Part shown: piece by piece, positions 2,352 to 50,563 of the stretch | How the letters are laid out: the number at the start of each line of letters is the position of its first letter | How positions within the stretch are numbered: position 1 is the stretch's first letter | NCBI GenBank assembly: GCA_903813345.2 | Contig: CAIIXF020000004.1 | Coordinates: 8,812,196 to 8,876,195 of the forward strand | Reading direction: 5' to 3' | Length of the DNA: 64,000 bases | Origin: Owenia fusiformis | Lineage: Eukaryota; Annelida; Polychaeta; Sabellida; Oweniidae | Notes under the pieces: generated by a model | What the model was told of the DNA's origin: nothing | The model's input: the letters and a program-made list of their open reading frames with translations, nothing else | Databases searched by the model: none | Translations under genes and position numbers: made by a program

Positions 2352-4151
2352 ATGAAGTTCCAAGTGGTACTTTTGATCGCTCTGATGTCTACAGCTATGT
2401 TGATGGACAGCTGCGATGCATGGTTTTGGAGAGACTTGTGCAGGTAAGAAACAAATCAAAATGTTGAGATGGTTGTTTACCCGAGAAATATTCAAAGGCA
2501 AAAAGGGAGATCAAATTGACAATTCTCCACGTTTTTTTGTTGTGTCTCTATTATTTTTTAGCTCGAGCTACAATTTAATAGCAGTTTTTAGCGTAAAAGG
2601 TCAAGGTGATTGGATGTTAAGGGGAAAGTTATGATAGTCGGAAGTTGATGCCAATAAAATTTAGAAAATACCTACATAGTTACTTTGTATCTAGATAATG
2701 TAAAATTGGTAAGTTTAAGTATTGGGGATTAAATGTTCTCCCCAACTTTCTTTATTTCATTTAAGCCAAGCGATGTTGACTATCTTATGAATTCTAAAAA
2801 AACTAGATTCTTCTAGATTTGTAGTTGGGAAGGTGTGCACAGTTACAGGGTGCGCAGTCACTGGTCCAATTGGATGTCGCGTTGCCATAACTTCTTGTAG
2901 TTGGGGATCTACAAAAGTGTGCGGAAAGCGAAAGCGACGAGAGTTAATGAAGGTACAACTATCAACTTAACTATTAAATCAAATCAAATAACGAGCTTCA
3001 TTGACTTAGACAGAAGTATTTTTCATATGTGTTCTTAGCTACTCGAGCATATCTTTTTTATTTTGACATATCTATATAATTTTAGAATATTTGCAGAATC
3101 GGCACAAATAATGATTTTAATCAAAATGGTAAATGAATCGAGTGTAAAACTACTAGGCAAATTAAATAATTAATTAGTTTACAATAAGTGTTGTATTATC
3201 TTCAAGAAAACTCTTGAGAAAGATGATCACCTCATTCCATTGCCTGCACTCTTCGAGGCGTATGATATGAACGAAGATGACAAAATTTCCGCGCAAGAGC
3301 TGGCCCTCACAGCGGGAATAGATGAATTCGAGACACAGAACGTTGCGTTTCCCCTTTGTGACACCGATGGTTAGTTCTACACATAGATCAGTGTTTTCCA
3401 GTTTTCAAAGAAAAAATAACAACCATGAAAATGCAATTTATATAATCATTAGTAGGTTAAAAAAAATTGTAAAGAAATAAAACATAAGCATGGTAAACAT
3501 ATTTTAAACATTGAAAGCAAAAAAGTTAATGTCGCGAAACCTGATAATGTCGGTTATTGTAACTTCTGAGATACCATGCCAAGTGATGGAATATACCCAT
3601 TGAACTAGAGTAAGACTTTATTAAGTTTATGAAAAAGTAATTTTGTATGACCATTCATAGGTTTTTTAAAAACAACTGACATAGTAATATTGATCGCTTG
3701 TAGGGGATGGCTTTTTGTCTCGCAAGGAATTCATTAATTCCCCACTTATGTTTGAAGACATCAGGGACATCGAAATGGGTAAGACTATTGTTTCTGCTCT
3801 ACGCCACGTGTTGTTCACTGTGTCTGTGTATCTAACAACATTTCCATTCTCACATTTCCTCATCTCATCCTTATAAATAGTATGGTGTTCCCTCTAGATC
3901 ACTTCCCAGTCTAAAATCTAGAATCTTATCGACGTCCCTCTTATTAATTAATTTGCATGCATAAAAATATTTAAGGCATGAGGCAAACATGCATATTTTA
4001 TACAATGGACTTAATATGTTAAATTGGTATTATTGCAGAGTACAGAGAAATTGCTTCGGAGATGAAAGGTGATGTTGATAATAAGATATCGTCTATCAAT
4101 GCACCCGATGACCCATCTGTTAAATCAACCAAAGATAAAATTGCGGCATAA
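2352..4151 (+). CDS. secreted six-cysteine / EF-hand protein, copy A (5 coding exons, 192 aa)
   Basis: Exons 2352-2443, 2817-2952, 3207-3369, 3704-3778 and 4039-4151 join in phase with GT-AG introns to 192 codons. Residues 1-23 are a signal peptide ending CDA. Residues 24-66 form a basic domain with six cysteines (30, 38, 43, 51, 58, 66; spacing C-x7-C-x4-C-x7-C-x6-C-x7-C), followed by GKRKRR at 67-72, a likely furin/convertase site with a Gly in the amidation position. Two canonical EF-hand loops follow, DMNEDDKISAQE (96-107) and DTDGDGFLSRKE (128-139), then a polar tail. An AATAAA sits at 4347-4352. The cysteine spacing, EF-hands and exon lengths 136/163/75 are shared with copies B and C, but this copy lies on the opposite strand, 33 kb away, with a shorter N-terminal basic segment. 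Function is unknown; secretion and calcium binding are strongly implied. The start is chosen because it opens the signal peptide and aligns with the paralogues. Confidence 0.9.
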
Positions 4152-4346
4152 CCATAACATTATATTTGGTCAATAAGGCGTTTATGAAGAGAGTGAATGA
4201 ACAAACAACCAATCAGGGGAAATTAAGAGTGACAGATAAATACAAATTATTCAGAACTGTAGAGACTTTTTCTTGATTTTGCCTAAACAAATACGCTTTT
4301 TAAGAACAAATTGAATGTACCTTGAAGCTATCATGACATTTAAAAA

Positions 4347-4352
4347 AATAAA
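4347..4352 (+). terminator. polyadenylation signal of EF-hand gene A
   Basis: AATAAA about 195 bases after the stop codon, within the A-rich run at 4341-4353. It is the first such hexamer downstream of the gene. Confidence 0.6.
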
Positions 4353-4446
4353 ACTCCCGATATTTTGCTTTGTACCAACTTTGTGTCAATGTCTATGGTC
4401 TATGGTACCCTAGAATTTTTGGAAGCCTCGCTTAGTCTTAGTTTAT

Positions 4447-5325
4447 GATTAATTAATGCACCCATATGCCTTTATTTATGGATCTGTCATCTGTCTAGTC
4501 ACAAAATAAAGCCGGAATTGCAGAAATGTTAATATTTTTTTTAATATTTTGATTTCATGTCTGCTTTTGATTTTTCGAAATGATTTTTGTTGATTGGGCA
4601 GTCTAGCTTTGTATAAAACCTCGTACCCACGTACGTTGATCTTGACAGAGTCATTGAAGGGTGTTTAAAGATTATTATTCATTATCAGTTTCTGCTTACT
4701 TACAGAGTAAATGGTGATAATGATCTTTTTATGAAGCGGGGAAGCCATGGTCAAAACATTCAGAAATAAACATAATAGAACTCATAGTAAGCATTAAAAG
4801 ATCAATTAGAAGCATTTAAAATCGAATCAAAGGTAAAATATGAATAATTGAAATATCCACACACGGACGTCACAGAACACACTTCCGGTTTTATAATAGA
4901 TAATTTTACCAATCAAAAAATGTTTTTATGAATTTGTCCGTTATCTGCTTAAATATGGTATGTATACTTGCGTTGATTGTTAAATTGCCAAATAGGTAGG
5001 TTTAAGCAGATGTCAAAGTCATTTGATCTCTTCTAAGAAGCAATATTTTGTCACTTGTCTCTCCCGGAATTCCTCAACATCTTTGCAATGCCGGCTATAT
5101 TCTATGGCTAGACAGTTGACAGATCCATAAATAAAGACATATGGGTGCATTGATTCATCTATAATTCAACATAAACTAATATTAAATAACTTCTAATAAT
5201 CTAATAATAATTCTAATAATCTTCTTAATAATTTTTAAAATTGAACCCTTCAAAGACTGTATCATGTCCCACGTACGTGGGTGAGGGTAGGTGGGTGCGA
5301 AGTAAGTTTTTTATACAAATCCATA
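4447..5325. repeat. interleaved inverted repeats
   Basis: Segment 4447-4530 is repeated inverted at about 5083-5167 (shared TTTATTTATGGATCTGTCA). Segment 4605-4670 is repeated inverted at about 5250-5325 (shared CCCACGTACGT and TTGTATAAAA). The order is A-B-A'-B', so the two hairpins interlock instead of nesting. Probably transposon ends rearranged by a second insertion or an internal inversion. No gene. Confidence 0.7.
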
Positions 5326-5874
5326 AGTGTTGATAATCATAGATGTATGTATACAACCATTCAAAATTACCAAGTGCTAAAAGTATATGAAAATATAAGA
5401 GGAATGAAGCAAGTGCTGTTTTTTATTTTTATCTAATTAGCTACTGTATGTATGAAATAAATGTATATTACGTATTGTATAAACTATACAGCTGATGTAT
5501 ATGTTACAAACACCATATAACAAACATAAAGAAATAGAAATGTTATAAAAATGTCAGAAAGATTTTTCAGTCATTTAAATTGCCCATTTTCAAAATCTTA
5601 ACGTAGAAAATGATGTCATAATTAACAGGCAAGGTTCCTTCTACACGGACTTTTCTGACAAATATAAAAGTAATCTATGATGTAATATGAGAAATTATGA
5701 TGTTTCGAAAACGTTAATAATTGACCTTGAATGGAACATCTAGTTATATGCAATGAAATGATACACCCTGGTCGATTATTTTAATACAATTTGTTTTGTA
5801 ATCATATAGCATACCGTCACAAAATGAAATTATTACGAAGTAACATTTATATAAATTAACATGATATATAGAGG
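5326..5874. other. AT-rich spacer
   Basis: No exon, RNA gene or clear repeat seen. Confidence 0.4.
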
Positions 5875-6936: not shown

Positions 6937-8106
6937 TATTTGAAATTCTAAAGTCAAAGCATGGTTAAAAACATAACTCTTAAACAGAAACATAGTGGAA
7001 TAAATATTCAATCAGTGTGGTAAAGTTGATGTCTCGTGCAGGAATCTAACTGGGCATCGTCTGCTCCAAACTCCAAAGCTGAAGCCCTGACCCATAAAGA
7101 CCTAGCCAATACAGCTGAGACTATAGTTGGAACTTGTTTTCGAGGTTCATTACAGTTGGTTTAAAATATAGATGCGTTAAATTTGATAGTGGATATGAAG
7201 ATCAACCGGCTTAGCGGGAAGTGCATTTTTGCAGAAAAAAACATTGTGTACTTCTGTTAACTAAATACATGTAATATAGCATTAATGATCTTGTAAGTTG
7301 GATGAAGATGTAAAAGTATATGTCCAAATATTGCGATTCATTAAAGGGTCAAGCTTTAATAATAGATTCCATATTACATCACACATAATCATCAATGCAC
7401 GAATGGCGTTATTTATTGTGAATTCGGGTCATTGTTCAAATGTTATAAGTGCATGTTCATGTGTATGCCTATGCCCTTAAGTGCATGCCTATGTTAAGTG
7501 CATGGCCAGAACATTTAGGTATGAATCTGCCCACAAATAGCCATGCTTGTTAGTAGTATTACACTGGATATTTTGTGTGTCATCCTTCTTCAAGTTAATG
7601 AAAGTCATGTTACCTCCATTAACAAGTCTATTGGGGTCAGGTTCCAATTCTACAATTAAGCAGATTAATGTGTCAAATTATAAATATGAAACATTTGAAT
7701 AACAGAATTCCAAATAATATTGAAAATATATGAATACATACAATATGTAATTGAAATGAGAATTTCAACATTGAAACTGTTGCGAAAATTCACAAATCAC
7801 AAAATACAATTGCCTGCATGCTGCTTATGAAATTAATGTTAAGAAATTCAGTTTGACACAATTATGAACTTGGCAACCTTAAAACACAGTGTTTTTCCCA
7901 AGATTGATTCTCAACTTGAAACAAATTCTAATTTTATCTAATAATTTTGAGTGTTTTCAAGCACTAAAATTTAAATAATCAATTAAAGCTAAACAATAAA
8001 GGCAATCATTTTCCTATATAGCCCATAATGTGGAAGATGTTATAAACTTTATTTCGATGAAATAATGTATAGTTATACAATATGTTCAGGCAAAATATCC
8101 ACTTAC
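6937..8106. other. spacer left of the last visible Ig exon
   Basis: I looked on the minus strand for the exon completing Ig domain 4 and found none. A slightly less AT-rich patch at 7040-7150 is open in one frame on each strand and follows a CAG acceptor-like site on the plus strand; it could be an orphan exon or transposon debris. TA-rich elsewhere. Confidence 0.35.
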
Positions 8107-11100
8107 GCGACACAGGTCTACCATTGATGAACCAGAATATCTGTGGAGTGGGTATACCATCAGCTATACACACATATGTGGCATGTCCTCCCTCAATAGC
8201 TTGGATATTCTTAGGTCTGGTGTCTGGACTACGCCAATATGGTTTAGCTGGAAAATATTTCATTCAATCTCTTCATCAAGTTTTTCCCTGCAAGTTGATA
8301 AAAATACGTTTTGGTTTCATCACATGTATTACATGTACAAGGGGCGATCCATATATTATGATAAAAATGCTATAATTTTGTGATTTTTTCACATATTCCT
8401 CTCATTTTTTTCAGAACATATAGACTAGTACAGTATGTAATTACGCATGGTAACCTGTATTTAGGGTAGGCAGGTCAGTTAAATCATGACACATGAAATA
8501 GATACATTTGTTTATTTAATCGTTCCTCGGTACCTATTTTAAGCACATCAAATGCACATTTGGGTCATTGTCAACTTTTGGTTGAACTGTTCCAAACCGA
8601 TGTTGCCCTTGTTTGCTAATTTCCACAGTTTGGATAGTTCTCTCTTCATAAATTGCAACACAAGTTATTAGAGTTCTTCTTTGTCTGTGAGCTCTTCTTG
8701 CAACCAGATTGTGGATAATCTTCAACGAGTGACCATACCTTCCTTAAATTTACAATACTACCTTGGAGATTCTTGGAGCAGATATACTGTAACACCTTGT
8801 CCATATACTCTATGAGCCCGCGTATGTCTCTGATAGTGTCCTCTTACTTTTCTTGATAGTCTCTGTTTATCTCACACTGCATCAGCTACACTAGCCTCAT
8901 CTGACATTTTGATTTTTGGTGTGTCTCATGTCATGTAATGCCAATTGGGCCATTCTGTCATACACTACTATTATGAGCTGTTGTGATGTTATAGTGAGCA
9001 CAATTAAACATGTTTAGCAACAAACATTGAGCAACAATACCAGATTTTTAAAAATGCTTTAAAATGACTAAAACAACAAGTTATTTTCATATTTTATGGG
9101 TTATGATTTAATTGACCTGCCTACCCTCAATGCAGGTTACCATGGCAACAATATCTCTAAATTAACTCAAGTTGTAGTAATACTATTTTAGTATTGTATG
9201 TGTGATTGTTTTATATCTATATGTTCTGAAAACTAGAGGGATATGTGAAAAAAATATAAAATTAGAGCTGTATTTTTTATCAGAATATATGGATCGTCCC
9301 TTGTACATTACATAACAGAGTATTATATATGTTTCCCTGCATTCAAGGAATCTATTAAACAACGTTTAAATATAAAATTATATGAAAATCAAGTGAATAA
9401 CTTTCGTACCTTCCACAACCAATTCGAAAGATTTTCTGAATGGAATATCAGTATTTTCCCCAGAACACTCATACTGCCCAGCATCATCATATTGTACATT
9501 TTCTAAGACAAGTTCTTGACCAAAACTGTCCAATCTGGATCTTGGGGGCATTACTTTGCCTTCCAGACGATCCCACGTAGTGTTTGGGGTAGGCCTAAAA
9601 AATAATCAAATCTTAAGTTGAAAATTTGCATTCATATTACGTTATATGTAACATTTAGTAACTAGTAGAATATTATACACTGATTTTGATATTAAAGAAG
9701 ACAAATGTATGAATTTGTAGTCAAGGTTGTAAACAGGTTTCATATAAAGTACGCGTACGCTAACTATAAATCCTGAACATTTCTGTCATTATTCTTATCT
9801 CCCTTGTATAACATGATTGAATCTCGATGTTTTGTCACTTAAAATTAGATAATAATTGCCATTCACACGTTTGAAACAAGAGGACATCATAAATTAACGT
9901 ATACGTACATTCAATGGTTAAACAATTGAAGAACTCATTTTACTGATCGACTCATGAGGTCGATTAAAATGTTAATTTAAAATAATACTCCGTCCGTTCC
10001 TTATATTTTCTACATCGTTTTCATGTAATTCGTCAGGAATCTGATATCTTGTATCCTGGCTAGCTACATAACTTACATCCCAGAAAAGATACATTTCGCT
10101 CTATGGGTTGTCCCCAAGAGAGCCACTTGAGCTGTTGGAGAAGCCCAACGAAGACTTGCACTTCGTGATTGAATCGTATCTAAGAAGTAAGTGAAAAACA
10201 TTACTCGTCACCATATTCAAAAATTGCAATAAATCGCTAAATAGCTTTAAAATATTGTTGAAGTTCAATTTTGAGATTTTGAGATTTTTCAGAGGTTTGT
10301 ATTTTTAACTAATATTTTACTCTATATAATGGAATACTACCGAGTCAATGCATTGGACGAGAAAACAGTAAATATAAACGTTTGAAAACCACAGATTCCA
10401 AGTTGCATGCTGCAATGATGCAAGGCGCGCAGTTAATGATCAAAACAATCCAGAAATGAATAAATAAGTGAATTGTATTGTACCCCCCATTGGCTCAATG
10501 ATGGCATCTTCTCCATGAACAAAAGCTTCGATGAATTTATTGTGCACAGTACAGACATATTTGTTTCCATCCCGACGATCCTTTTGAAGAACATTGGCAA
10601 AGTGTAGCCTTCCTGGAAGACAAAGTGATACTCATTTGGCACAGTGTTTCTATCGTTGACTGCAATTGTGCTATCATTAACATTCCCAAAATAGCAAATA
10701 CCATAAACAAACCTGTGACATTTTTCACCAAACCTGGTCAAATATGCTAATATTTCATGATTGTTTTTTCTCTTTTTCCAGGCGTGACAAACCCTATTTT
10801 CAAACTGCGGTGCAGTGGCCCTATTCGCCAAGCGACACTTAACATACCTGAATGATCCATTGTTATTCTTGATGTGGTATTGAGCGGTTCAAGCCTGTCT
10901 CCTGGCTCTACTATGGACCAGGATACCTCCGAGGATGGATAACTGCGTGGGGGAACACAGTTTAATGTCAGGGGGCTTCCAACATATGGCCTGTATACTA
11001 TTGGGTTATCCCGCTGGGGAAACCTTTCTAGTACTGAAATTAAAAACATTCATTCTGCACACATAGTTTCTCTGTTCATTGCGATGACTGGATTTCCAAG

Positions 11101-13084
11101 TGTTTGGCCCTTTCCACTGTTAGATGGTATCTCTGAACTTGATTTAGTCTTTAACACAAAGAAAACTTTTTGACAACAATTCGGATGATAAAATGAACAG
11201 TGGAAGTGTCTCCCGGAAGGAAAGAGTATTACTCTACTGAGCTGTAAGCCATAGTAAGGGTAGATCTCAACCACTGACTGCACTTAATATCATGAGATAT
11301 TTTTAGTATTTTTCATATTCACCTTGGTCGATTCTTTGAGAATCATGTGACCCTTATAGTATTTATTATAATGAACAATTATTTGCGATTCACAACCGAG
11401 AAGGCAAAACTCATATTTGATATAGTCATTAAAACATCTGTTGGACATTTAAATTAGTTTAAACTAGTTTTGTACCTGCAACTCTAAAAACTATTTTCTG
11501 ACTTAGAGATTTCCCATATTGATTCTCTGCGATACATTGGTATGTGCCCTCATCTTTCTCAATGGGCGTATTGAAGATCAGAGTTCCAGAACCTGGTTGT
11601 TGGGTAATACGCCCATCAATACCACTAGCATCAAAATAGTTATCGTCCAATAGCCACTTGTACCTTTTGATGGTGAATTAAAGAATTTGGGTGCAATTAA
11701 GAAAATATCAATCTCTAATTTGGTGTGATTAGAAAAATGCTAAATATTCTAAATGGGTGTATAAAGGAAATATCAGAATCTCGATAGGATGGAGTTCGTC
11801 GACTGGGTGCATCGACTATTTGCTTCGAGGCAAGATCACTGTGTATACATACTGTGGTTGGGGAGACCCTGAGGCTATACACCTCAGTTCTATACGCTCA
11901 TCTGTTTTGAAAGCAACTTCCTGAGGTGGTTGTTCTAGAATAAGTGGTGGAACGGTATCTGAAACGAAAACATGTTGAACATGAGCAAGATTTTTATACC
12001 AAAATACAAAAGTTGGTAACTTAGGTATTGCAAAGGTTATATGAGATTTATAATATATTGCAGATCTTTTCGAAGATATTTCATTTGAGATTGTACAGAG
12101 TACTATATTGGTATGTCAATTGTATGCTTTGCTTGAAATTTGGTCATTCCCTATAGAACCAATTTGGCCTAGTCTAGAATCAAGTAAAAACAAACATTGC
12201 GTCTTATATGGTACTTAATACTTGTAACTAACAATGTTGTTCTGGGATATACAAGGGCCGATCAAAAAGTTTCTTACCGTTGGCTCTAGATTTCATGATA
12301 AGAGGAGTTGGATGCTCAAACTTTTACATGAGACAGGGTAATAAGTCTGCTTGAAACTGTGGGAGTTTCATATTAATTGGTTCATTGGTAGTGACACACT
12401 CAATACACATTTTCAATGATTAAGTAAGGTGGAGCAGCGTTTTTTATAAAAAAAATGTACAAAGCAGCAGTTTTGGACTTTTCTAACACTAAGTAATGTC
12501 ATCTGTCAACAGACTGTAGTAGTAATCATGTTTAAGTAGTTGTTATGTCTAATATTCACCCTCCTTCAAAATATTCACTCCCAGTTGCAATGCACTTCCT
12601 ATAATTGTCCACCCAATCCAAAAACACATGTTTAGGACCTTTGTATGAGAGGTTGCAAACGATGTCGGTAAATTTACAGAACCACAACTGGGCAGATATT
12701 TTATATATAATGCTGCTCCACCTAACTTAGTCATTGAAAATATGTATTGACTCTGTGTCACTACCAATTAACCAATGTATATGAAACTCGTACAGTTTCA
12801 AGCAAACTAATTATTCTGTCTCATGTTAAAGTTTGAGCATCCAACTTCTCTTATTATAAAATCTAGAGCCAACGGTAAGAAACTTTTTGATCGGCCCTTG
12901 TACTTCATATGTAACAAATTACTCATAATTAAAGATATCATCGATCATTTTAAATTACACATAAATAGATTCTTCATATACATCATGCGTAACATTAATC
13001 ATGTAATATAATGCACAATATGTATATCGACTTACTTGAATATGTTTTTGCTAGACAAGCTAATAATATGACTACTTTCAACAT
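8107..13084 (-). CDS. L1CAM/neuroglian-like cell adhesion molecule, 5' part (8 exons, 362 aa, incomplete)
   Basis: Minus-strand exons 13036-13084, 11853-11958, 11476-11663, 10848-11033, 10484-10612, 10077-10179, 9410-9594 and 8107-8247 join in phase with GT-AG introns. Residues 1-16 are a signal peptide (MLKVVILLACLAKTYS). Ig1 (about 17-114) has Cys 43, Trp 55 and YQC at 93-95, with the L1-type GRITQQPGSGTL strand. Ig2 has LNC, a V-S-W core, ITMDHSG and YVC. Ig3 has AKC and DAGQYEC. Ig4 starts with YVCIADGIPTP and stops at exon 8. Two exons per Ig domain with phase-1 domain boundaries is the arrangement known for the L1 family. Such proteins are neuronal or epithelial surface receptors with six Ig and several FNIII domains plus an ankyrin-binding tail; everything after mid-Ig4 is missing from view. 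Introns hold two TA-flanked transposons. The start is set by the signal peptide. Confidence 0.93.
8338..9303. mobile_element. TA-flanked inverted-repeat transposon in Ig-gene intron 7
   Basis: Ends CAAGGGGCGATCCATATATT (8338) and its inverted near-copy ending at 9303, flanked by TA on both sides. Arms match for about 65 bases. Minus-strand fragments inside (near 8910-8560) are open for short stretches separated by stops, so an old transposase is possible but not identified. The ends resemble those of the 12252-12900 element. Confidence 0.85.
12252..12900. mobile_element. mariner-like non-autonomous element in Ig-gene intron 1
   Basis: Inverted arms of about 190 bases; the outer 40 bases (starting CAAGGGCCGATCAAAAAG) are identical, flanked by TA. 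On the minus strand the stretch ending near 12548 encodes FLDWVDNYRKCI followed by a YFEGGEY ending, matching the known C-terminal end of mariner transposases (W..RW.KCI...G.YFEG). Only this fragment remains. The near-identical arms suggest relatively recent activity. Confidence 0.9.
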
Positions 13085-19170: not shown

Positions 19171-19414
19171 TACTTAGACACAGCCGCCAGTCCTTGTGTA
19201 TGTATTCGTCTATCTATTATAGATGTCACTTCGATTCAGTTGAATATTCATAGACCTCGATTGCATCCCGAAGGGTCCGCAGTATCTTGACTTTCTCCTT
19301 CGAACTTTAGATATCGAACCCATAAATCTATATTGTTTTGGCAAGGAAAACTGAGATTTTCTTTGGTATAAAAAGTACATGAGTGGTGCTTTATAAAGAT
19401 GACACATTGCGTAA

Positions 19415-20128
19415 AGGAGGAGGGGAGTTAGCGCAACCGATTTTGGACAGTCATATGTTTGATTTTGGCCATTTCCTGGGGATTTAAAAAGGTGCATATG
19501 TTAGGCAAATGCATTACCTCCAGGAAAATCACTTCTAGAGACGATGAAATAATTTCGACTTTGAGACAGGGTAGATGCAAACAACCCACCCACATGTTTT
19601 TTCTAAAATGTTTTCCTGATTTTCAACCCCTTCCATCCTTGCTTTTTTAATTTTTCTTGCATCAATATGTTGAGTTTTGACACACAGTTAATCCCTTAAA
19701 AGGAATAAATGATTCCTTTTAGATAAAGTGGAAAACAATATTTCCCATGTTATTTTCCCATAGGAAAAATCATTGCTTTCAGCTAAGTTTGGTCACCCAT
19801 AATGGGTATCTTTAAAACCCCTGATGGAATCACTTATTCCTTTAAAGTGGTTAACTATGTGTCAAAATGCAACATATTGATGCAAGAAAAATTAAAAAAG
19901 CAGGGATGGAAGGGGTCGAAAATTAGGAAAACATTTCAGAAAAAACATGTGGGTGGGTTGTTTGCATCTACCCTGTCTCAAAGTCGAAATTATTTTATCA
20001 TCTCTAGAAGTGATTTTCCTGGAGGCAATGCATTGGCCTAACATATGCAATTGTTTAAATCCTCAGAAAATAGCCAAAATCGAACATATGACTGTCCAAA
20101 ATCTGTTGCGCTAATTTCCCTCCTCCTT
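19415..20128. mobile_element. inverted-repeat element (~0.71 kb)
   Basis: Arms 19415-19690 and 19855-20128 are inverted copies (shared GGAGG blocks, GACAGTCATATG and TTGAGACAGGGTAGATGCAA). The short open frames 19459-19650 and 19802-20041 are the two arms read in mirror, not genes. Confidence 0.85.
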
Positions 20129-22560
20129 TTTGTAAAGTTTACTTTTCAGTTTTAATTTGAAAAACGGTTTCTCCTTGGCTAAACTTATTTACGACCTCAT
20201 TTGAACTGTTTTTTTTAATATGAAGATACACCTGAGTGGTCTTTCACATTGTACATTTAGCTTGCTTTTTGATCATTTTCATTCTTTTCCAAGCTTAGAT
20301 TTGTTATTAGTTATGAATATGAATGTCTTCGGGTTTAGGGTCAAACACGCTTCTTACATGTTGCTTTGTTTATTTATATTTGGGTGAAACGTTTCCCCAA
20401 AGTAAAAAGTCACTATTACATTACAAAAGGTCTAGGAGTACAGCCTTTATCACAGGATCGTTTCATATCATACTTTATATACCACCTTATCCTATTTGTG
20501 ATATGTTTCAACAATTATTTAGTGGTCATTCATTCAGAATCAGTACAAGTATGGAATGCGCATCGGCTCGCCTCGAGGGCTATCTTATAAAAACACTTTG
20601 TCGGTGGTCTTCCGACAGCTACAGGAGGTACATCCGAACTCTTGCAAATGTTACCTAAGATGCCCAAAAAGAATTGACTAAGTCACGCAAGTCTTTGTAA
20701 ATGTACATTGTATATAATAATAACCCACTTTTGACATTTGACTGAAATCATCAGAGTGTTGATCACCAGTGTGAATAATATTGATATTCTTAATGTCATG
20801 GTTAGATCAATCCCAAATGGAATGTAGCAATGATCGTATCATGTTTTATCACCTAACCTACAAACCCAAAATCAATCAACTTCTATTACAATAACCCAGA
20901 TGCGAGTAGAAATAATCTTGATTTACGTCATTAAAAATTCAAAACTCAGTGAAAGTAATATCATATTTGAAATCTACATGTAAAATTACATCTAGAAATG
21001 TGGTTTTAAAAAGTGTTTATCAACTTTGAAAAATTAATTTTCTTTGAAAATGTGACTTCTAGCTCGGGGAGATTCCCCATAGACCCCATGCTATAAAATC
21101 ACAAAAAATGAAATATCTTTTCTTTTAGTGGACAGATAATATTTTGCTTTACTGGACATATTTTCATTAGTATAAGTATCAGGCACATAAGTGTTATGAA
21201 AATTGAGCCACTTAAATTGATAATATTCAAGTTTAAGGGAACTTTCTTATATACCTGCCATGTTAATTGACCCGAATCAGCCACCTGGTGGTGAAACTGG
21301 TAACTACCTACTCGCATTTGGGTAATTGGGGTTTTCACTAAAAAAATTATCGGTGAAATATCTGCTTCGCACATGGTTTGGCAATTATTCATTTCAACTC
21401 ATTCTTCCCCAACTGAAATTCATTACATTTTAATGATATATCAGATGCTTCAAGATAAACCAGTTCATAGTATTCAATTATCCCGGGTCAATTATGTAAA
21501 TAAACATCGCTTTCTATGTACATAATTGTCTTCAATTTCAAACATTCATGTTCGCAACGCGACTTATCTAGCTGATAAGACAATCACGGTCCCGCAGGGC
21601 CACAGTTCTGCAGAGCTGGCTGGAGGACCCCGCGCATGGTCTCAACTCTAGCACCGATTGTCTCCTTAGCTATCATTTTTCAATGTACATTCTTTGAGGC
21701 ATAGGGAATAAAGCCAATTAATAGTTGATTGTAAATATTTGTATTCAGAATTGATTGTTTCGTTGTCAGAGATAAAGAACTTATTTTAGTAAGTTTGGTT
21801 TATGGATAACGAAATAAACCACGCCTACTTAACCTTATATTGTTTCTAATTGATTGTTTTGTTGTTAGACATTAAATATGCACTAAGGCATAATCACTCG
21901 GATACTCATCACAATCATATCCAGCAATCGTAATGTTAAATCGGACATCACCTTATCTCCTAACTGGTACTATTACTGAGATTTCCTATCAACACTTTAG
22001 TCTACTAAATTATTGTTTAAAACTCATATATGTGAGCGTTAATGCAGGGGCATTTCATACAGCCTATAAACACCGCCCTTTCATTAAATGTGTTTTCTGG
22101 TTTCCTTAATTTCGCCAATTTCTTAAGAAATTGATGGATAATTTGAAGATTATATGATCAGACACATAAACATGGCATATACCACATAAGTTTCTCATAT
22201 TTAGTTGTTGTTTTTTAGTTGCTGTTTTTTTTGTTGAACCATATATTACGTACATGGATAACGTATTTTATTTACAAGTAGGCTGCATCTTGTATTAGAC
22301 CAACATAGCATCAAGTTTCACTAGAGCTGCTTAGAACACTTCTTATCAGATGTGTTGACAGCTCTCCTGATAAAGAAAGTGACCGGAGATTTCTGGATTT
22401 GATTCTGATTTCAACTAATATTAATATGTTCTTCGCAAGAAACTAACAAAGTCATGGTTGCTCATAATGCGGCATGACACTTAACGCTAGGATCACGTAC
22501 TATAATATTCTAGCTGCCAAACTAAGAATGCCCTTGGCCTTCCCAGTCCCGTCAGACACT
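20129..22560. other. gene-poor stretch with a dispersed repeat and a GC-rich patch
   Basis: 20895-21065 is a diverged copy of the repeat at 44745-44915 (shared ATGCGAGTAGAAATAA and ACATCTAGAAAT). At 21570-21672 lies a GC-rich patch bounded by imperfect inverted copies of AGACAATCACGGT. No exon recognised; open frames at 20323-20658 and 21099-21392 lack splice context, motifs or signal peptide. Confidence 0.4.
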
Positions 22561-29985: not shown

Positions 29986-30017
29986 ATGATCGAAAAGCAA
30001 TTTATAGCTGAGAAATA

Positions 30018-31425: not shown

Positions 31426-32255
31426 TATGAGGTACTCGAATAGGAAAGAGCTCATGGTCAATGTTTACACATGTTTGGAGTTATTGAAGAAAATGTGATA
31501 TGGGTGTGGTTCCGAATTTGAAGTCATTGCTGGAAAATATGATTATAATACGTGAAATTATATCTATAAATACAGCACTAAAAATAACAGTACACATGAA
31601 GTACATGTATGATTGTGTTCAGAAATGTTTGAAACCCTTACGGAAAATTCTGTCTGCATTTTGTCACCATTGCTCTTTCTTCCCGCATTCTAGTGCTGTT
31701 TGAATGAATATATTAATTAATGAATTTCTAACTAAAATATATCACATTTTTTATAAACCACAAACATTTAGATCATAAAAAGTTTTCAATACTTGAGTGA
31801 GCACGATATGCAAGGGTTACTAAGTTGACACAGTAAATGACCACTGATATTGTGTTAGTCCATGCACACAGCGTATTCTGCTAATACACATTTGCTAACA
31901 CCCCTCACTTTCATAGTGAAGTGACTAATTGGTTTATGTTTACGTTTTAATGTGTTTTGGGTTCCTTGTTACAGCAAGGGGGCCAGTAAAGTAGACTAAC
32001 ATGTTTGCATGGCAAGTTTTGATAGAATATGTGAGACACTTTAACGGTATGTTAGTATGTAGGTATGTTAATGGGAGGTCAAATATCGCTGCGCTGTAGT
32101 GTACTACAGACGTCCTAGCGATTTCATACCATGGAATATAGGTTTGTCTTGACTGGATAGGGTCGGGGAGAGATCAATTAACGTAATTTTTATATGTGAT
32201 TGAAAATATGAAACGGTATAATTAGATTTTGTTGTTTTAAGGTTAAACCGCAAGA
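31426..32255. other. gene-poor stretch
   Basis: No exon or repeat that I can support; the open frame at 31500-31703 has no motif. Confidence 0.35.
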
Positions 32256-32383
32256 ATAACTCATCCCCTAGACAACTCATCCCCTGGACAACTCATCCCC
32301 TAGACAACTCATCCCCTGGACAACTCATCCCCTAGACAACTCATCCCCTGGACAACTCATCCCCTGGACGACTCATCCTTTGG
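32256..32383. repeat. 16-bp minisatellite, eight units
   Basis: Eight consecutive units of ACAACTCATCCCCTAG/GG; the last two bases mostly alternate AG and GG, giving a 32-bp higher-order unit. Confidence 0.95.
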
Positions 32384-33040
32384 CATGTTTGAGTAATTTA
32401 ATGTAATATTATTAATTCATATATTATTCAAATGATTAACACGATCGTCGATTTAATACCACACTTTTGTTACGTAAACAAAACTTTAAAAATGGTTAAG
32501 ATCTGCACTTCTAACTCTTTCCATTTACATAACAATGGTAAGGTATTAAAGCGACGATTCTGTTGTCTTCTGACTGACAAGTAAACAAAGACTTTCTGGA
32601 GGGGAAATCTGAAAAATTGTTTAAAAAACAATATATACGATATTATTACTATGGTATTAATCTGTAATTTGTTTTGTAAATATTTACCTTTAATTTTATT
32701 TTTAATATACAATTTCAATATTAAATTAACATTGATTGAAGAAGCTCCTTTGATGTCATAAGCTCCTTTGATGTGATTATATGTGTGTTGTTCATAGTTC
32801 AAATATTCTTTCATCCAAAGATACTTTTTTCACAGCAGTCACAGATGAAGTTACTGAAGTTCATGTTTCAAAATTATGCATATTTTTTGTTATGAAGTAT
32901 TAAGTCATGTAATATAAGGACAAAATATGAAAGTTTTAATGGCACCGTTTGACCATTTAATTTGTGTCAATAAAGTGAAAAATAATATTTAGAATGATTC
33001 AAGGTGTATTTAATAAAGTAATTTGACTTCATGTGATAAA
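32384..33040. other. AT-rich spacer between the two minisatellites
   Basis: About 660 very AT-rich bases. No exon recognised; the minus-strand frame 32470-32814 is composed mostly of Ile, Lys and Asn codons as expected by chance. Confidence 0.4.
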
Positions 33041-33212
33041 GGATGAGTTGTCTAGGGGATGAGTTGTCTTGGGGATGAGTTGTCCAGGGGATGAGTTGTC
33101 TAGGGGATGAGATGTCCAGGGGATGAGTTGTCCAGGGGATGTGATGTCCAGGGGATGAGTTGTCTAGGGGATGAGTTGTCCAGGGATGAGTTGTCTAGGG
33201 GATGAGTTGTCT
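33041..33212. repeat. 16-bp minisatellite, inverted relative of 32256-32383
   Basis: About eleven units of GGATGAGTTGTCTAGG/CAGG, the reverse complement of the left array, with a few substitutions and one single-base deletion near 33185. Confidence 0.95.
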
Positions 33213-37560: not shown

Positions 37561-40500
37561 TTACATCTCTTGTTGGTTCTTTGGCGCCCCGTCTTCATCG
37601 GAGGCTTTTGACTTATCCACGGCACGTTCACCACCATCTTCTGCAGATTTAGCAGACGTGTTTCCGGATCCCTCTGTATCTGATGTTTCAGCGTCTGTTT
37701 TCTTTTTCATTTCTTCAGCCACCTCTTTGCGTTCTGAAAAAAATTAAATCGATTAAAAGCATTACGTAGATGTAATTTATAAGTCCAAGATTTTACAGCG
37801 TTGCTCACATGTGGAAAATTATTAATTGATTCTCTTTGGAAGTTCAATAAACAGAAAATTTCTAACAGATTTTCCAAGATTCATCCAAAAGGTAAACGCT
37901 ATCTAAAATTACTTAACTACATGACTCGTTCTATCAGAATTTGACAGCCCGTTTTATTCAGAATAACGTACATTTTAAGTAATAATGAAATGAAATTAGA
38001 TGCACAATTAAACCTCATATTAATACATGAATTCAGTATTGCCCCTTATTGATCGGATCAATTGTCCTTGGCCAAAACCGATCGAAATGCTTATTTGAAA
38101 TCGTTGTATAGACTTGGAAGTTTTGCTGAATTTTAACGAACAGTCAAGCAATGTTCTGGTCAGCCAAGATACTCGAATGATAATGTCCAAACTTGTCATA
38201 CTTCTCGAAAGGATGATTTGAAATCGTTGTATAGACTGGCAGAATCTCTTGCTAACTTTAAATGGTCAAGTACTGTTCTGATTGGTCAAGGTCGTGTACA
38301 CTGTTCTGATACTGGAATGACAATGCCCAAAGTTATTATACTTACCCATTTCGATGTCTTCAGGGTCTTCAAAGATGAGTGGGGAATTAATAAACTCATC
38401 GTGAGACAGGAAGCCGTCACCTGGAACCAAACGATATAATTTCTTGAAAATAGTTGAGACTAACCTATATTCTGTTGTACTGTGTATGTACTCTAGATTA
38501 TATTAAGTCGTTCCTTGCTAAGAACTCGGGCAACCACCCTCAGTGTTGCTGCACACAATAATTCCATTGTTAATGGATACAAATAATGGAATTCTGCGCT
38601 ATGGGCTGATGCGAAAACATTATAAACAGTCAAAATTGATGGTGTATAATTAATGTTTCAAGTTTATTAAGTGGTTCAACTAACCAACTTCTCTCAAAAA
38701 CAAACAATGGACGACAAATGTATCTTTACAAATCAATCTTCAAAACCAAATTACGAAGGTTAAAGACAATCTCCCGATTAATTATTCTCATTTTCAAAAT
38801 ATATGGGATGAATACGTAAATACTATTTTTTAGTTTGTAGATTTGATGTTGATAATAATTGATCATTCTGTAAATTGAAAATTATTCCCTCATGTTGTGT
38901 GTGGACCAATCCGATGCTTGGTGTAACATATACGTACCATCGTCGTCACATAACGGGAACACCACATTAAGTGTCTCAAGTTCGTCCATCCCCGTAGCTA
39001 GAGCCAACTCTTGTACAGAAATTTGCTCGTCGTTATCCAGGTCATAAGTTTCAAAGAGAGCTGGTAATGGGATGAGGTGGTCACCTTTCTCCAAAGTATC
39101 CTACAATCACCGTTATGAAATGGATAACCAAGACCCAAGACGAATTGTTTATCTAACTTAAACCACACAATGGGCACTGACTCTTATCAAAAGGTTAGTG
39201 GTCCATGATCCAATTTTAATATTGGTATTGTTGACGTTTTTTGAAAATGAATTTTTCAAAATAAAGATTTTTGGTTTTCTATGACTGAAGTTTTGCACTT
39301 AACAAGATAGCACGTATCGCGAGAACCCATTGAAATCAATGGAACGCCTAATTATCGTATCCGTTGTTCCCTCTCCAAAAGAGGAGACGCGAAAGATTTT
39401 CCTTATAAGGTCAAAATATTTCCCATGATGCAGTTCGCGGATGAACAAATTCATACTTCCTTGTTTTCCCCATAGGTTTAATATGGGGATTTTCACACCT
39501 ATTTTTCAATTGATATACTCGTTCATATTTCCTTACGGGAGTACGGGAAAATTCTCAAAAACGATTAATCTCCTATTAATCTTAATACCATATGGTATAA
39601 CATATATTTTTTCATTGTTTTGATCCTTGGTGGGATGAAAACGATGATTGAAAAGTGAGAAAATATTCCGGAAGAAAAGGTCACGTGATTAGTTGACTAG
39701 TCGCCATATTGGAAAAAATAATTTCATTCGACTTTCAACACTTTCATTCCGATCTTACCGCACTACAAACTGCAACATCGACGCAACAACAGAATAAAAG
39801 CACTCATCTTCAAATTGCATTATAGAGTTACGTTGAAAACCCATGCACAAACAACTGAGCGGTTGGCCAAAGAAGACATGTCGCTATTATCTAGGTTAAT
39901 CGGTTCAGTGTCCGAAAGCATATCTATAGTACTCGATTCCGAATTTATTGTTCATTGTACAAGCTTTTTTTTTATTATAATCGGTAAACTGACCATTAAC
40001 GCAATGTCAAAGTACAGTACTTCCGATGGTGTCTCTGCTTTGTTTAGCGTGCGGTTGTATAAAACTGCGTAGTTTGTTTGATTTAAAACGCAAAAAGCTA
40101 CGCAAAATGTATCGTTGTAAAATATTGACCAATTAAATGTTGTCCTTTTTTAGGGCCTTGTAAGTATATATTTTCGTACCTTCTCGATTAAAGAGCGAAC
40201 CACGAAAAGCTTAATTGAATAATCTGAATAATCTAATAATTGATAATAATTTATCCTCGATTATCATATATCAAGATGTACTGCAAATAACAATCAGCGA
40301 TTTAGAAAAAGGATAAATTCTTGACTTAGTAATATTCTAACATAATTTCGGCCATGTTATGCCTAGCAACCACATAACAAAGGAATGTTGAAAACTTGGG
40401 ATTGGGAGAAAATAAGAAAATTATATCTAACAGGAGAAGGTTTTGATTATAATTCTGATGTCTCAATTTACATAAACATGCAATAACATGCAAAAAATCC

Positions 40501-41549
40501 AAGGGTACTTATCAAGTAGTTTTGGAGAAGAAACTGTTCTCAAATTTGTGAAGAGAACGCGATTTGCGATTTTTTTGTCTATGAACTGTATTTTACCTTT
40601 TAACATTCATAAGACTATACAGTAGAAGCTCGATTTTCATGAATTAAAGCATGTTGGAAAGAACAAATATACTAAAAAGAGCAACAATTATGAACGTGTT
40701 ATCTCTATAGCATTAGAAACAAGGTAACTATCTCATGATTTTCATTTGCTGGCATTAACTTCCTTCTTCGAAAATATCGCCCCTCTACCCCAAATTTCTT
40801 ATGTCATGTAATTGTGGCTAAAGGTTAAACAATAACAGAGGCACCAAAAATTGACCCCCTCACCCTGCAAACATTAAAGTTAAATAATTTGTGCATACCT
40901 CGACTAATTCCCGTCTCCTTCTTCTACCGCAAACTTTTCTGCTTGCCCAGGAACAACCATATCTAGCAACTACACAGCCATATGGACCCGCATATGTACA
41001 GCCAACAACCCTACACACCTTTGAAACTGCCCATCTGAAAGAAGCATATTATATTTGGTTGATCCCATTATTTTAAATTACTGTTCCTGCTTATAATCAA
41101 AGATGCGAGAAAATAAATGCACTAGATGAATATCTGAAAATTAGAAAAATCCATCCAGCCACGACCAAGGAAACAAGTCTCAACAAAAAGATTCTAAAAT
41201 AATTACTACGGTTGTTAGAACACTATCTGAATTGAATAATGTGAACCAGATGACCAAGATGTTTGTGGGATAAACAAAATAGTCGGTTAAAGATGTTAGA
41301 ATTAACCCTTGGCCAATATTATATATCTACTTTCAGGACCTACTGCCCTAGGCCAGAATATGGCTTATTTTGGCTAAATATTTCTTATTAAAAGTGAGGG
41401 GTCACTTATTAAGCTCCTCACCTGCATATCGGGGCTTTAACTACCCTCCATACACGTCGGAACCGTACCCTTAATCTCCACGCATCAGAACTGTCCAACA
41501 GCACCGCAGCAGACACCAAGGCAATCAAAAGGATAACGTGGTACTTCAT
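37561..41549 (-). CDS. secreted six-cysteine / EF-hand protein, copy B (5 coding exons, 224 aa)
   Basis: Minus-strand exons 41422-41549, 40899-41034, 38938-39100, 38346-38420 and 37561-37733 join in phase. Residues 1-23 are a signal peptide ending DSSDA. Residues 24-78 are strongly basic, beginning with a Trp/Arg/Val-rich segment, and carry six cysteines (42, 50, 55, 63, 70, 78) in the family spacing. GRRRRR follows at 79-84, a likely processing site. Exon 3 supplies EF loop DLDNDEQISVQE and the start of DDDGDGFLSHDE, completed by exon 4. Exon 5 encodes a 57-residue Ser/Glu/Lys-rich tail ending NQQEM. A TATA box and non-coding exon lie upstream. Very close to copy C: the six-cysteine domain differs at only a few positions. 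The protein should be secreted and calcium-binding; its activity is unknown. The first Met of the signal peptide is used as start. Confidence 0.93.
38096..38340. repeat. tandem duplication next to exon 4 of gene B
   Basis: 38096-38218 and 38219-38340 both begin GAAATCGTTGTATAGACT and stay alignable for about 120 bases. The second copy runs directly into the splice donor of exon 4. Gene C has a single counterpart at about 49030-49160. Confidence 0.75.
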
Positions 41550-42690: not shown

Positions 42691-42830
42691 ATGTAAACGA
42701 TCGATGTAAAACATAAGTCTATAAAAAGCATTACTTAACAATTAGACAGAAATATCAAACAACAAAAATACTACAACATTTAATATGTACTTATTTATCA
42801 CTTTGTCTTTCAGTCCAATTAATTACTTAC

Positions 42831-42910: not shown

Positions 42911-42932
42911 TGGTGTTCAATAAATACACGGG

Positions 42933-42940
42933 CTTTTATA
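42933..42940 (-). promoter_or_regulatory. TATA box of EF-hand gene B
   Basis: TATAAAAG in the context CCCTATAAAAGCCC. Gene C has CCCTATAAATAAC in the corresponding place, which supports both. Confidence 0.7.
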
Positions 42941-42949
42941 GGGCTTTGG

Positions 42950-44640: not shown

Positions 44641-44915
44641 TTAGGCGATCTATTTCAACGTTTCTTGTTGAAATCCTCTCAGCTCCTGCTTTCCAATCAA
44701 TGTTCACTCATCCACCAAAATCCGGTTGATATTCATCTGATAAAATAGATGCGAGTAGAAATAAATTTGATTTACGTCGTTAACTATTAAAAATTCAGTC
44801 AAAGTGATGTCATTTTTGAAATCTACACGTACAAGTACATCTAGAAATATTGTTTCGAGAATTGTTTATCAAGTTTGTAAATTTAATTCTTTTTTAGAAA
44901 TGTTACTTCTAGTAC
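44641..44915. repeat. dispersed repeat related to 20895-21065 and 35130-35260
   Basis: Its left half matches the interior of the 34.7 kb element and its right half matches 20.9 kb, so the three are pieces of one element family; this copy joins both halves. Confidence 0.7.
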
Positions 44916-47760: not shown

Positions 47761-47802
47761 TTATATTGTTTACACCCCTTGTTTGTTCGTCGGTACGGCG
47801 TC

Positions 47803-50563
47803 TTAATCGGACGCTTTTGACTCGTCCGCAGCACTTTCACCCCCATCTTCTGCAGATTCAGCAGAAGCGCCTTTTGATTCTTCTTTATTCGACGTTTCGG
47901 TGTCTCCACTCTCCTTCATTTCTTCAGCAACATCTTTGTGTTCTGAAATAGTGCCAAATAAACAAATTGATTAAAAGCATTCGAGTGTTATTTGAGTTGG
48001 TCATCATTGGTTTTAAATTCGCTCTGGAAGTTCAGTAAATGGAGATTTCAAACAGTTTTTCCAAGACTTGTATAAAGGGCAAACACCAGAGTTTCAGATC
48101 CTGAGGAAAACATTTAGTATGAATGGCAAGTATTTTTGAAAAGGAGAACCCCCGATAAGGAGAGCTTTTTAGAAGGACATTGCTTTTTTATTCTGGATGT
48201 GAAGTTTAACACTACATCAGAGATGATCTTAAATATTAAGTGATCTTAGATATTCCCCAAAACAACTTGTGTGATATAAAAATTGCTTTTTAAGAACATT
48301 TTTTACAAGTCAATGAACTTGTTTTTTAAGGTTAGACTCTTTATTTGTGGTTAAATTTTTTCCCTGGGGTTATATCCAGGTTTATATCATATGTTTGCGC
48401 GGGAGATACACCTGAAAGCTCCTGATTAAAGTTTTAATTGGAAAAACTTTTGAACGTTTTGGAAAAACTTCTCTTTATTTGACAAAAAATGTGGTTATAA
48501 AAGGGGATGTAAAGCTACAAACAAATTAGTTGAGCGAGAGAAATCATTCTGAATACTACGAGTTTCGGGACCATGTCATATTCGTACGAATGGCAAGTAT
48601 TTGGAAATTATTTTTCGTATTTGTCAAATTACTCCTAAAATTATAAGTATACGAGTGGGGATCTGAACCTCTGGCAAACACAGTCTCAATTCAAAATCAC
48701 TTTTTATTTTTGGAATTGTTTCGTCATAATCCAGCTTTTTATCATACATCTTTGTAAAACAAAATTACCTAAGCCTAAGATCATTCATATTTTAAAACAG
48801 TTGTGATTGAAGAACCTTTACTGTCTGTTTTGTGAAGTGTTCAATATACTGTTAACATGAGAGACAGGACTGTAAACACCCTTTCATAGATTCTTTGGAT
48901 CGGAATGAAATTCTATAGTTAAAAGACCAGTGTTGATAAATTGATGAATTAAATGAGTGGAGATTTTAACAACAATCGAAAATATTAATTCAGTCTTATG
49001 CTGTTCATATTATATTAATTCATTGGTCTTGGTCAAAACCAATAGTTTTTGTATAGACTAGGAGTTCTTTAATTTTCTGAAATATAATGAATAGTAAAGC
49101 ATTGTTCTGATTGGTCAAGAGAATGTACAGATATGTAAATAAAAAATGTCAAAACGTGCACTGCTTACCCATTTCGATGTCCTCGGGGTCTTCAAAGATG
49201 AGTGGGGAATTAACAAACTCCTCGTGAGACAGGAAGCCGTCACCTGGAACCAAACAATGGTATTTCCTCAAAATAGTAAGTAATAGTTAACCCATCATGA
49301 GTGGACTATTCATTTAAATAGCTGGTTTCTTGTTCTTGGCCAGAATAACTCGGGCAACCACATTCAGTTAAGCAACAAACAATAATAGAAAAGTAAACTA
49401 GCCATACAAATAAATTAGATTTGCGAGCATGAAAATACTCTCGAAGAAAATATATTGGATAAATACGTCCTGTGGCATATTAAAAGGAGAATATTTGATT
49501 GTTTGACTTTTCTAATAATAGATCCTTCAGTTTCTTCAAAATGTTTGCCTTAGGTTGCGGTTGGTCCAATCTGATGCTAAAACATACACTTACCATCGAC
49601 GTCACACAATGGGAACGCAACATTCAGCGTTTCTAATTCATCCATCCCTGTAGCCATGGCCAACTCTTGTACAGAAATTTTCTCGTCGCCATTCAGATCA
49701 TACGTTTCAAATAGAGCTGGTAATGGGATGAGATGATCGTCTTCTCCCAAGGTCTCCTGCAATTGAAATTACAGTAGGTGATAACGGTTATTATCGGAAG
49801 ACATGAGTAGATCCCAAGCCTTATATGGATCTATCACATGACATTATAATTGAAAAGGTGGACAGAAGTAAGTTGGATTCCTTTATGGTCCTATATGTCA
49901 GTTGTGGATCTATCACATACATGTAGATATCATGTGACCAAATACCAATTTTGAACTTTTGGAAATCTTTTCCCTGGTTATAGTTTATAACGTGCATATA
50001 CCGGAAGTCCACTTTCGGAACACGGGCGTGTCAGGCTTTTTCAAAATCCATTAAAAGCAAAAATTGTTTTAAAGGACATCCGTTTACCTCAACCAATTCT
50101 CTTCTCCTTCTTCTACCGCAAACTTTTTTGCTTGCCCAAGAACAACCATATTTTGCAACTACACAGCCATATGGACCCGCATATGTACAGCCGACAACCT
50201 TACACACCTTCGAAACTGCCCATCTGAAAGAAGCATATTAAGTTTGTTTAATTTCCATCTACGTAAATGATCCACTATGAATGACTGTACGTGATAAATA
50301 TGTATACTTGAATACGGGTCGATGAAATCCTATGTTTTCTATCGTCCATTATAATCAAAATGAGGTGTCAAAATATATGAAAACGCGTTTTGATCTAGAT
50401 TAAAAAAGTGAGTTGTCACTCTTCAAGCTTCTCACCTGCACACTGGGGATTTAATCGCCCTCCATACACGTCGGAATCGTATCCGGACCCGCCACGCATC
50501 GGAACTGTCCAACAGGACCGCAGCAGACACCAATGCAATCAAAAGGATAACGTGGTGCTTCAT
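47803..50563 (-). CDS. secreted six-cysteine / EF-hand protein, copy C (5 coding exons, 213 aa)
   Basis: Minus-strand exons 50436-50563, 50088-50223, 49594-49756, 49169-49243 and 47803-47942 join in phase. The signal peptide is residues 1-23. A basic segment and six-cysteine domain (Cys 42, 50, 55, 63, 70, 78) are followed by GRRRRR (79-84). EF loops are DLNGDEKISVQE (108-119) and DVDGDGFLSHEE (140-151), both with acidic residues at positions 1, 3 or 5 and Glu at 12, so calcium-competent. The acidic tail ends KASD. Compared with B, the tail stops 11 residues early because the codon after the shared GAT is TAA where B has GAA. An in-frame Met two codons upstream (50569) is possible, but alignment with A and B favours 50563. 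Exon lengths are identical to B except the last. Intron 4 holds an inverted-repeat element. Confidence 0.93.
48070..48682. mobile_element. inverted-repeat element in intron 4 of gene C
   Basis: AAACACCAGAGTTTCAGATCC at the left is matched inverted by GGATCTGAACCTCTGGC at the right; GAATGGCAAGTATTT occurs near both ends in the same orientation. Arms are short and diverged. Confidence 0.55.

What the first reader, a model, noticed from the sequence alone, without database searches (positions are those of the whole stretch)
2352..50563. A three-member secreted family joining a cationic six-Cys domain to EF-hands, with a processing site between
All three copies encode signal peptide, basic six-Cys domain, Gly plus 5 basic residues, two canonical EF-hands and a charged tail. 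This layout resembles cationic peptide precursors with an acidic pro-part, except that here the acidic partner is a calcium-binding EF-hand pair. I know of no described family with this combination. A host-defence or matrix role is inference.
Basis: partly seen in the sequence, partly recalled or inferred. Interest (0 to 1): 0.8.

Follow-up and report, generated by a model that had tools for sequence, protein, structure and literature searches.

The report
Secreted cationic-peptide/EF-hand precursor gene family
Three related genes in this invertebrate genome encode secreted proteins in which a small, positively charged, cysteine-rich peptide is joined by a likely cutting site to an acidic calcium-binding part; the layout resembles the mussel antifungal peptide mytimycin, but the peptide part is different and belongs to a larger family in this genome.

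Summary
Three five-exon genes (g1 +, g2 -, g3 -) encode a signal-like start, basic six-Cys domain, Gly plus five Lys/Arg, two EF-hands and a charged tail. EF-hand_1 passes its Pfam cut-off in all three; the six-Cys part has no Pfam match and no significant solved-structure match. dN/dS is mostly well below 1.

That no such layout is described is wrong: mytimycin, a mussel antifungal, has signal peptide, Cys-rich peptide, dibasic site and acidic EF-hand extension (PMC8004829). Its 10 to 14 Cys array is not this one; homology could not be tested.

At least 17 loci in the genome share the plan. Types B, D and C' have C-x7-C-x5-C-x7-C, type C adds a Cys to each arm, the window type A has a longer Cys-bearing loop. 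The link of type C to the others is the weakest.

Best reading: precursors of hairpin-like cationic host-defence peptides, held inactive by a calcium-binding EF-hand pro-part and freed by proprotein convertase. Expression, cleavage, calcium binding and activity are untested.

The parts
2352..2443 (+). g1 exon 1: signal peptide and start of the mature part (first Cys)
   Evidence: ATG, donor gtaaga, phase 2
2817..2952 (+). g1 exon 2: Cys 2-6 and CGKRKRREL
   Evidence: also found by search of the genome
3207..3369 (+). g1 exon 3: EF-hand 1 (DMNEDDKISAQE) and start of EF-hand 2
3704..3778 (+). g1 exon 4: rest of EF-hand 2 loop (DTDGDGFLSRKE)
4039..4151 (+). g1 exon 5: charged tail and stop
41422..41549 (-). 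g2 exon 1: signal peptide, basic stretch WRLRVRFRRVWRVVK, first Cys
40899..41034 (-). g2 exon 2: Cys 2-6 and CGRRRRREL
38938..39100 (-). g2 exon 3: EF-hand 1 and start of EF-hand 2
38346..38420 (-). g2 exon 4: rest of EF-hand 2
37561..37733 (-). g2 exon 5: charged tail and stop
50436..50563 (-). g3 exon 1: signal peptide, basic stretch WRVRIRFRRVWRAIK, first Cys
50088..50223 (-). g3 exon 2: Cys 2-6 and CGRRRRREL
   Evidence: modelled as a hairpin with modest, uneven confidence
49594..49756 (-). g3 exon 3: EF-hand 1 and start of EF-hand 2
49169..49243 (-). g3 exon 4: rest of EF-hand 2
47803..47942 (-). g3 exon 5: charged tail and stop

Best explanation
The genes encode prepropeptides of cationic, disulfide-bonded host-defence peptides. 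Shown by sequence: the secreted layout, the opposite charges of the two halves, a Gly plus poly-basic site between them, coding constraint on both halves, and a genome-wide set of loci with the same plan and related Cys frames. Inferred: in the secretory pathway, where calcium is high, the EF-hand pair binds Ca and folds; it holds the basic, aromatic and amphipathic peptide (in g2 and g3 WR-x-R-x-RFRRVWR-x-x-K) by charge and, calmodulin-like, through an exposed hydrophobic face, and keeps it inactive. A furin/kexin-type convertase cuts at the basic run; carboxypeptidase trimming would leave Cys-Gly, which can be amidated to Cys-amide. The freed hairpin-like peptide then acts on microbial membranes or walls.
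For: Layout and splice signals. Charges +3.7 to +12.7 against -16.0 to -33.8. EF-hand_1 over Pfam cut-off in 3 of 3. dN/dS 0.20-0.38 in the cationic part in 6 of 6 pairs, 0.06-0.12 in the EF pair in 4 of 6. Same plan in types B, D, C and C'. Profile comparison of signal plus cationic part: A with B/D E 3.7e-14, A with C E 1.4e-8, B/D with C E 2.2e-6. Known precedent with reported antifungal activity: mytimycin (PMC8004829; PMC3210125 passages). Polychaete BRICHOS AMPs show that a chaperone-like pro-domain is an accepted AMP strategy (PMC6780910 and PMC6265681 passages).
Against: No expression, proteomic or activity data. The cationic part matches no Pfam family and no solved structure significantly. 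The g1 and A5 mature parts are only mildly cationic (+3.7), C' is near neutral (+0.8). Two of three type B genes have Ser instead of Gly behind the last Cys, so amidation is not general; type D has only a lone Lys near that place. No NF-kappaB site enrichment in 1.5 kb before the ATG of g1, g2 or g3, though in g2 and g3 a probable upstream non-coding exon means the promoter may lie elsewhere. EF-hand 1 lacks the position-6 Gly. In single-protein searches the link between type C and the rest is weak: an A query finds four C loci at E 0.03-0.93 and the C and C' queries list no A, B or D locus.
Confidence: 0.55

Rival explanations
1. Neuropeptide or peptide-hormone precursors: the Cys-rich peptide is cut out, amidated and signals; the EF-hand part is a co-secreted calcium-binding piece.
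For: Cys-Gly followed by a basic run is an amidation-type signal. A snail gene that encodes putative neuropeptides plus an EF-hand region is cited in PMC8398477 (Bogdanov 1998, reference title only seen).
Against: Strongly basic long N-terminal stretch in g2 and g3, many divergent paralogs, Gly missing in two of three type B genes; hormones are usually more conserved (recalled).
Confidence: 0.13
2. Uncleaved secreted matrix, mucus or tube protein: the basic Cys domain binds polyanions or cross-links and the EF-hand pair and acidic tail bind calcium.
For: The acidic, Ca-binding half is typical of matrix proteins; SPARC_Ca_bdg scores weakly, below its cut-off (g1 E 0.0011, 19.7 bits against 22). 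The EF pair is the most constrained part in 4 of 6 pairs or close to it.
Against: Gly plus a five-residue basic run is kept in 5 of 5 type A genes and N-I-G-R-K-R in 7 of 7 type C genes, as cutting would need; the opposite charges of the window proteins split exactly there.
Confidence: 0.15
3. Secreted toxin-like or deterrent peptides of a gland, using the same precursor plan.
For: Cys-rich, cationic, multi-copy, with processing sites; type C scored with a conotoxin model at E 0.92, not significant. Spider cytolytic-peptide precursors have linkers said to resemble part of an EF-hand of recoverin (PMC7889660, one passage).
Against: No match to a toxin family; the organism is not shown to be venomous; the long basic Trp/Arg stretch fits membrane-active peptides better (inference).
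Confidence: 0.05

Closest known systems
Mytimycin (MytM) precursors of Mytilida
   Same: Signal peptide of 23 aa, Cys-rich and usually cationic mature peptide, dibasic site, acidic C-terminal extension with EF-hand, multigene family, non-coding first exon (PMC8004829 passages). In g2 and g3 an acceptor-like site also lies just upstream of the ATG.
   Different: Mytimycins have 10 to 14 Cys, the array starting with CC (Table 1); here 4 or 6 Cys with no CC. Public MytM gene sequences have 3 exons and 2 introns (PMC3210125 passage); type A has five coding exons. Mytimycins are reported from Mytilida. Homology of the EF parts not testable here (no mytimycin sequence found).
BRICHOS antimicrobial peptides of polychaetes (arenicin, alvinellacin, nicomicin)
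   Same: Pro-domain with proposed chaperone role (acidic proregion in nicomicin), convertase-type site, short cationic mature peptide, usually a disulfide beta-hairpin (PMC6780910, PMC6265681 passages).
   Different: Pro-part is BRICHOS and lies before the peptide; here it is an EF-hand pair behind the peptide. No BRICHOS match.
Tachyplesin-type precursors (recalled, from no call)
   Same: Signal, disulfide-bonded hairpin, Gly-Lys-Arg, acidic tail.
   Different: Acidic tail is short and unfolded; Cys spacing differs.
Snail gene for putative neuropeptides plus an EF-hand region (Bogdanov 1998, reference title only)
   Same: Peptides and an EF-hand region in one gene.
   Different: No basic Cys-rich domain known to me; not compared by sequence.

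Membership tests
Mytimycin family | Signal peptide, cationic Cys-rich peptide, basic cleavage site, acidic EF-hand extension in that order | tested here: met
   Gene models and charges, against PMC8004829
Mytimycin family | Backbone of 10 invariable Cys in the mature peptide, beginning with CC | tested here: not met
   4 or 6 Cys with spacings 7-4-7-6-7, 7-5-7 or 3-3-5-3-3 against the abstract and Table 1 of PMC8004829
Mytimycin family | Sequence homology of mature peptide or EF-hand part | not testable with these tools
   No mytimycin sequence was found in what I read; Pfam matched only general EF-hand models
EF-hand proteins | 12-residue EF loops matching the Pfam EF-hand models above cut-off | tested here: met
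   EF-hand_1 over cut-off in 3 of 3 window proteins; the pair model in 2 of 3
BRICHOS antimicrobial peptides | BRICHOS domain in the pro-part | tested here: not met
   No BRICHOS match at E up to 10 in the three window proteins, nor at E up to 1 in three proteins of types C, B, C' and the L015 ORF
Antimicrobial peptides (functional class) | Measured antimicrobial activity of the mature peptide | not testable with these tools
   Sequence only
SPARC-type extracellular calcium-binding domain | Match to SPARC_Ca_bdg above cut-off | tested here: not met
   19.7, 14.1, 15.3 bits against 22

The most novel reading that the evidence does not exclude
An unreported superfamily of hairpin-like cationic peptides in this (perhaps annelid) genome in which an EF-hand pair serves as a calcium-loaded intramolecular antidote and chaperone, holding the peptide as calmodulin holds basic amphipathic peptides; with mytimycin it would show that the EF-hand pro-part is an old or repeatedly invented lophotrochozoan device to which different Cys-rich peptides are joined.
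Probability: 0.3. Interest if true: 0.7.

Novelty: new variant of a known kind. Interest (0 to 1): 0.5.

Why it matters
Many cationic peptide precursors carry a disordered acidic pro-part (recalled); a folded calcium sensor in that place suggests a testable, calcium-dependent way of storing and releasing a membrane-active peptide. The loci also give, within one genome, a graded series of related cysteine frames (4 Cys, 6 Cys with one more in each arm, 6 Cys with an enlarged loop) on one precursor plan, which can be used to test how disulfide-rich peptides diversify.

Tried and rejected
Pfam search of the cationic domains: nothing on those residues in the window proteins; only non-significant matches in other types. 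Solved structures by sequence: EF-hand proteins for the whole of g3; for the cationic part alone 3 matches up to E 10, best 0.37, guanine deaminase, taken as chance; type C part 2 matches, best 0.92. AlphaFold2 of exon 2 of g3 with g2 and g1 (45 aa, lacks the first Cys because that lies in exon 1): best model mean pLDDT 77.9, the other four 66.0, 51.9, 50.0, 44.2, pTM 0.34; strands 2-16 and 19-32 and a helix 37-44; PDB fold search: 3 matches up to E 10, best 8.8, none significant. So the hairpin is a lead, not a result. NF-kappaB sites in 1.5 kb before the ATG: strict form 0 in 3 of 3 genes; loose form 10, 6, 2 against 7.2, 4.7, 4.5 expected. Candidate loci C11:11655054, C6:16039460 and C1:33300889 were fetched; no ORF that looked like the family passed my pattern filters, so they are not counted. 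Other weak hits (E 0.2 and above, such as C8:29794423, C8:2891196, C2:34459558, C4:10933253) were not fetched. The generic EF-hand search listed 127 matches, none in the window; 150 of 504 candidates were scored. Rfam and tRNA searches of the window: nothing. Species: 498 Mb with about twelve chromosome-size contigs recalls the annelid Owenia fusiformis (recalled, not tested); three matches to the haemoglobin linker model PF16915 fit, but linkers are reported from ten phyla with the globins (PMC6400237 abstract and passages).
Full report
Observation. The window is G000:C4:8812196-8876195 of a 498 Mb genome. I rebuilt three genes with five coding exons each, GT-AG borders and equal phases: g1 on + (2352-4151, 192 aa), g2 on - (41549-37561, 224 aa) and g3 on - (50563-47803, 213 aa). 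Each has an N-terminal hydrophobic stretch ending near Asp-Ala, then Trp, a basic domain with six Cys, Gly plus five Lys/Arg, two EF loops and a charged tail. g2 and g3 are a head-to-tail pair; g1 is inverted, more diverged, and lacks most of the basic stretch in front of Cys 1. With the fourth copy A4 there are six pairs: dN/dS of the EF pair was 0.06-0.12 in 4 of 6 (one not computable, g1-A4; one, g3-A4, 0.82 from four changes), of the cationic part 0.20-0.38 in 6 of 6, of the tail 0.30-0.40 in 6 of 6, of the signal 0.06-0.46 in 6 of 6; synonymous change is near or beyond saturation in the pairs with g1 (dS 1.0-2.9), and the tail alignment with g1 is gappy. Between g2 and g3, 9 stretches of DNA align and the five best are at the five exons; between g2 and g1, 3 stretches align, at exons 1, 3 and 4.

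EF-hands. EF-hand_1 passes its cut-off in 3 of 3 and the pair model EF-hand_7 in 2 of 3. Loop 2 is canonical; loop 1 has Glu or Asp instead of Gly at position 6, and the loops start 32 residues apart in g3 (read). The EF-hand exons of types A, B and D are each other's nearest relatives in the lists: an A query gives the five A loci, then the three B loci (E 3.9e-6, 1.6e-4, 4.7e-4), with the first other gene at E 0.099; a B query gives B, A (best 6.4e-7) and D (1.2e-4) loci before the first other gene at E 1.88.

Wider family. Genome searches with queries of types A, B, C, D and C' and reading of the fetched loci give 17 loci: A five (g1, g2, g3, C4:12.137 Mb = A4, C12:2.92 Mb = A5), B three (C8:27.88, C4:21.96, C6:14.69 Mb), D one (C6:39.45 Mb), C seven (C10:18.25, C6:16.11, C7:4.49, C1:19.33, C1:1.94, C9:25.40, C12:10.38 Mb) and C' one (C12:10.39 Mb). 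This is a lower bound. A first EF loop was seen in 17 of 17 (in D it has Lys at position 3) and a second EF-hand exon in 16 of 17 (not seen near C6:16.11 Mb); in A5 exon 4 appears frame-shifted, so A5 may be a pseudogene. In type C, signal, cationic part, basic site and EF loop 1 lie in one exon; in A they lie in three. I read the exon border behind D-x-(D/N) of the second EF loop in 13 of 17 loci (ten, three), and all 13 have an intron there; the other four were not printed.

Cys frames. A: 7-4-7-6-7 in 5 of 5. B and D: 7-5-7 in 4 of 4. C': 7-5-7. C: 3-3-5-3-3 in 7 of 7, which is 7-5-7 with one more Cys in the middle of each arm. A 9-row alignment of B, D, C' and C (two of three B and five of seven C genes were given) keeps the four frame Cys in register. 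A profile comparison of A with B/D opens its gap over A's third and fourth Cys (E 3.7e-14), so A looks like the 7-x-7 frame with a longer, Cys-bearing loop. D finds B directly (E 4.2e-7). A with C gives E 1.4e-8 over the signal, the basic stretch and the region of the first two Cys, and B/D with C E 2.2e-6; these are single-pair E-values on shallow alignments and include the signal peptide. Single-protein searches support the link to C only weakly: an A query finds four C loci at E 0.03-0.93, a B query one at 1.36, and the C and C' queries list no A, B or D locus. So A, B and D are one family; C and C' share plan, Cys frame and intron place, but their common descent with A is likely rather than shown.

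From the near-symmetric spacing I infer nested disulfides (1-6, 2-5, 3-4) in a hairpin; AlphaFold2 on exon 2 gives two long strands with the turn at residues 17-18, but with modest and uneven confidence and without the first Cys, and no fold match.

Processing site. All five A genes have Gly plus five Lys/Arg behind the last Cys, all seven C genes N-I-G-R-K-R, one B gene G-K-R and two S-K-R, D has G-T-G-K and C' W-I-G-R. So a basic site is general or nearly so, an amidation-type Gly is common but not universal. Charge up to the last Cys ranges from +0.8 (C') to +12.7.

What is known. Mytimycin precursors have the same order of parts, and their pI falls towards the acidic C-terminal EF-hand region (PMC8004829). 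The authors leave the role of the EF-hand open. Mytimycin is called the only strictly antifungal mussel peptide (PMC3210125 passages). The Cys array and the exon count differ, so these genes are not mytimycins by that test; common descent of the EF part is open. Ten paper searches were made. [quoted passage not shown] I recognised no other EF-hand-linked cationic peptide in the listings; the review PMC6780910 on worm antimicrobial peptides has no occurrence of 'EF-hand' or 'calcium' in its main text. The library holds open-licence papers only.

Mechanism. Best reading: defence peptide precursors whose EF-hand pair neutralises and helps fold the peptide until a convertase frees it. Shown: layout, charge, site, constraint, related loci. 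Inferred: cutting, amidation, calcium binding, binding of the peptide by the EF part, antimicrobial action. The calmodulin analogy (a calcium-loaded EF-hand pair that grips basic amphipathic peptides) is established knowledge recalled, not tested here.

Noticed in passing
L015 (G000:C8:16616618-16616887, - strand): A short secreted-looking ORF with two tandem 3-3-5-3-3-like Cys units, the first followed by CGSKR, similar to the type C peptide (E 6.5e-4 to 6.9e-3 against the seven type C loci), with no EF-hand seen in the 1.5 kb fetched: perhaps the same peptide fold without the EF pro-part.
   Followed up: partly
window 8006-8263 and 11816-12115, - strand: Immunoglobulin/I-set-like exons (E 1.6e-5 and 1.9e-4, below Pfam cut-off) between g1 and g2, probably a cell-adhesion gene.
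   Followed up: no
window 32242-32399 and 33025-33200: The same 16-nt minisatellite in two inverted arms about 700 nt apart.
   Followed up: no
window 62954-63357: A 40-nt minisatellite that leaves long open frames on the - strand, so the ORFs there are probably not genes.
   Followed up: no
window 19404-20138: Inverted repeat with 313-nt arms, 91% complementary, 109 nt apart: a possible foldback or MITE-like element.
   Followed up: no
window 59093-59371, - strand: ORF with a signal-like start and a coiled-coil-like stretch; only weak, mixed Pfam matches.
   Followed up: no
L002 (G000:C12:2.92 Mb): Type A paralog with an apparent frame shift in exon 4; pseudogene or assembly error.
   Followed up: no
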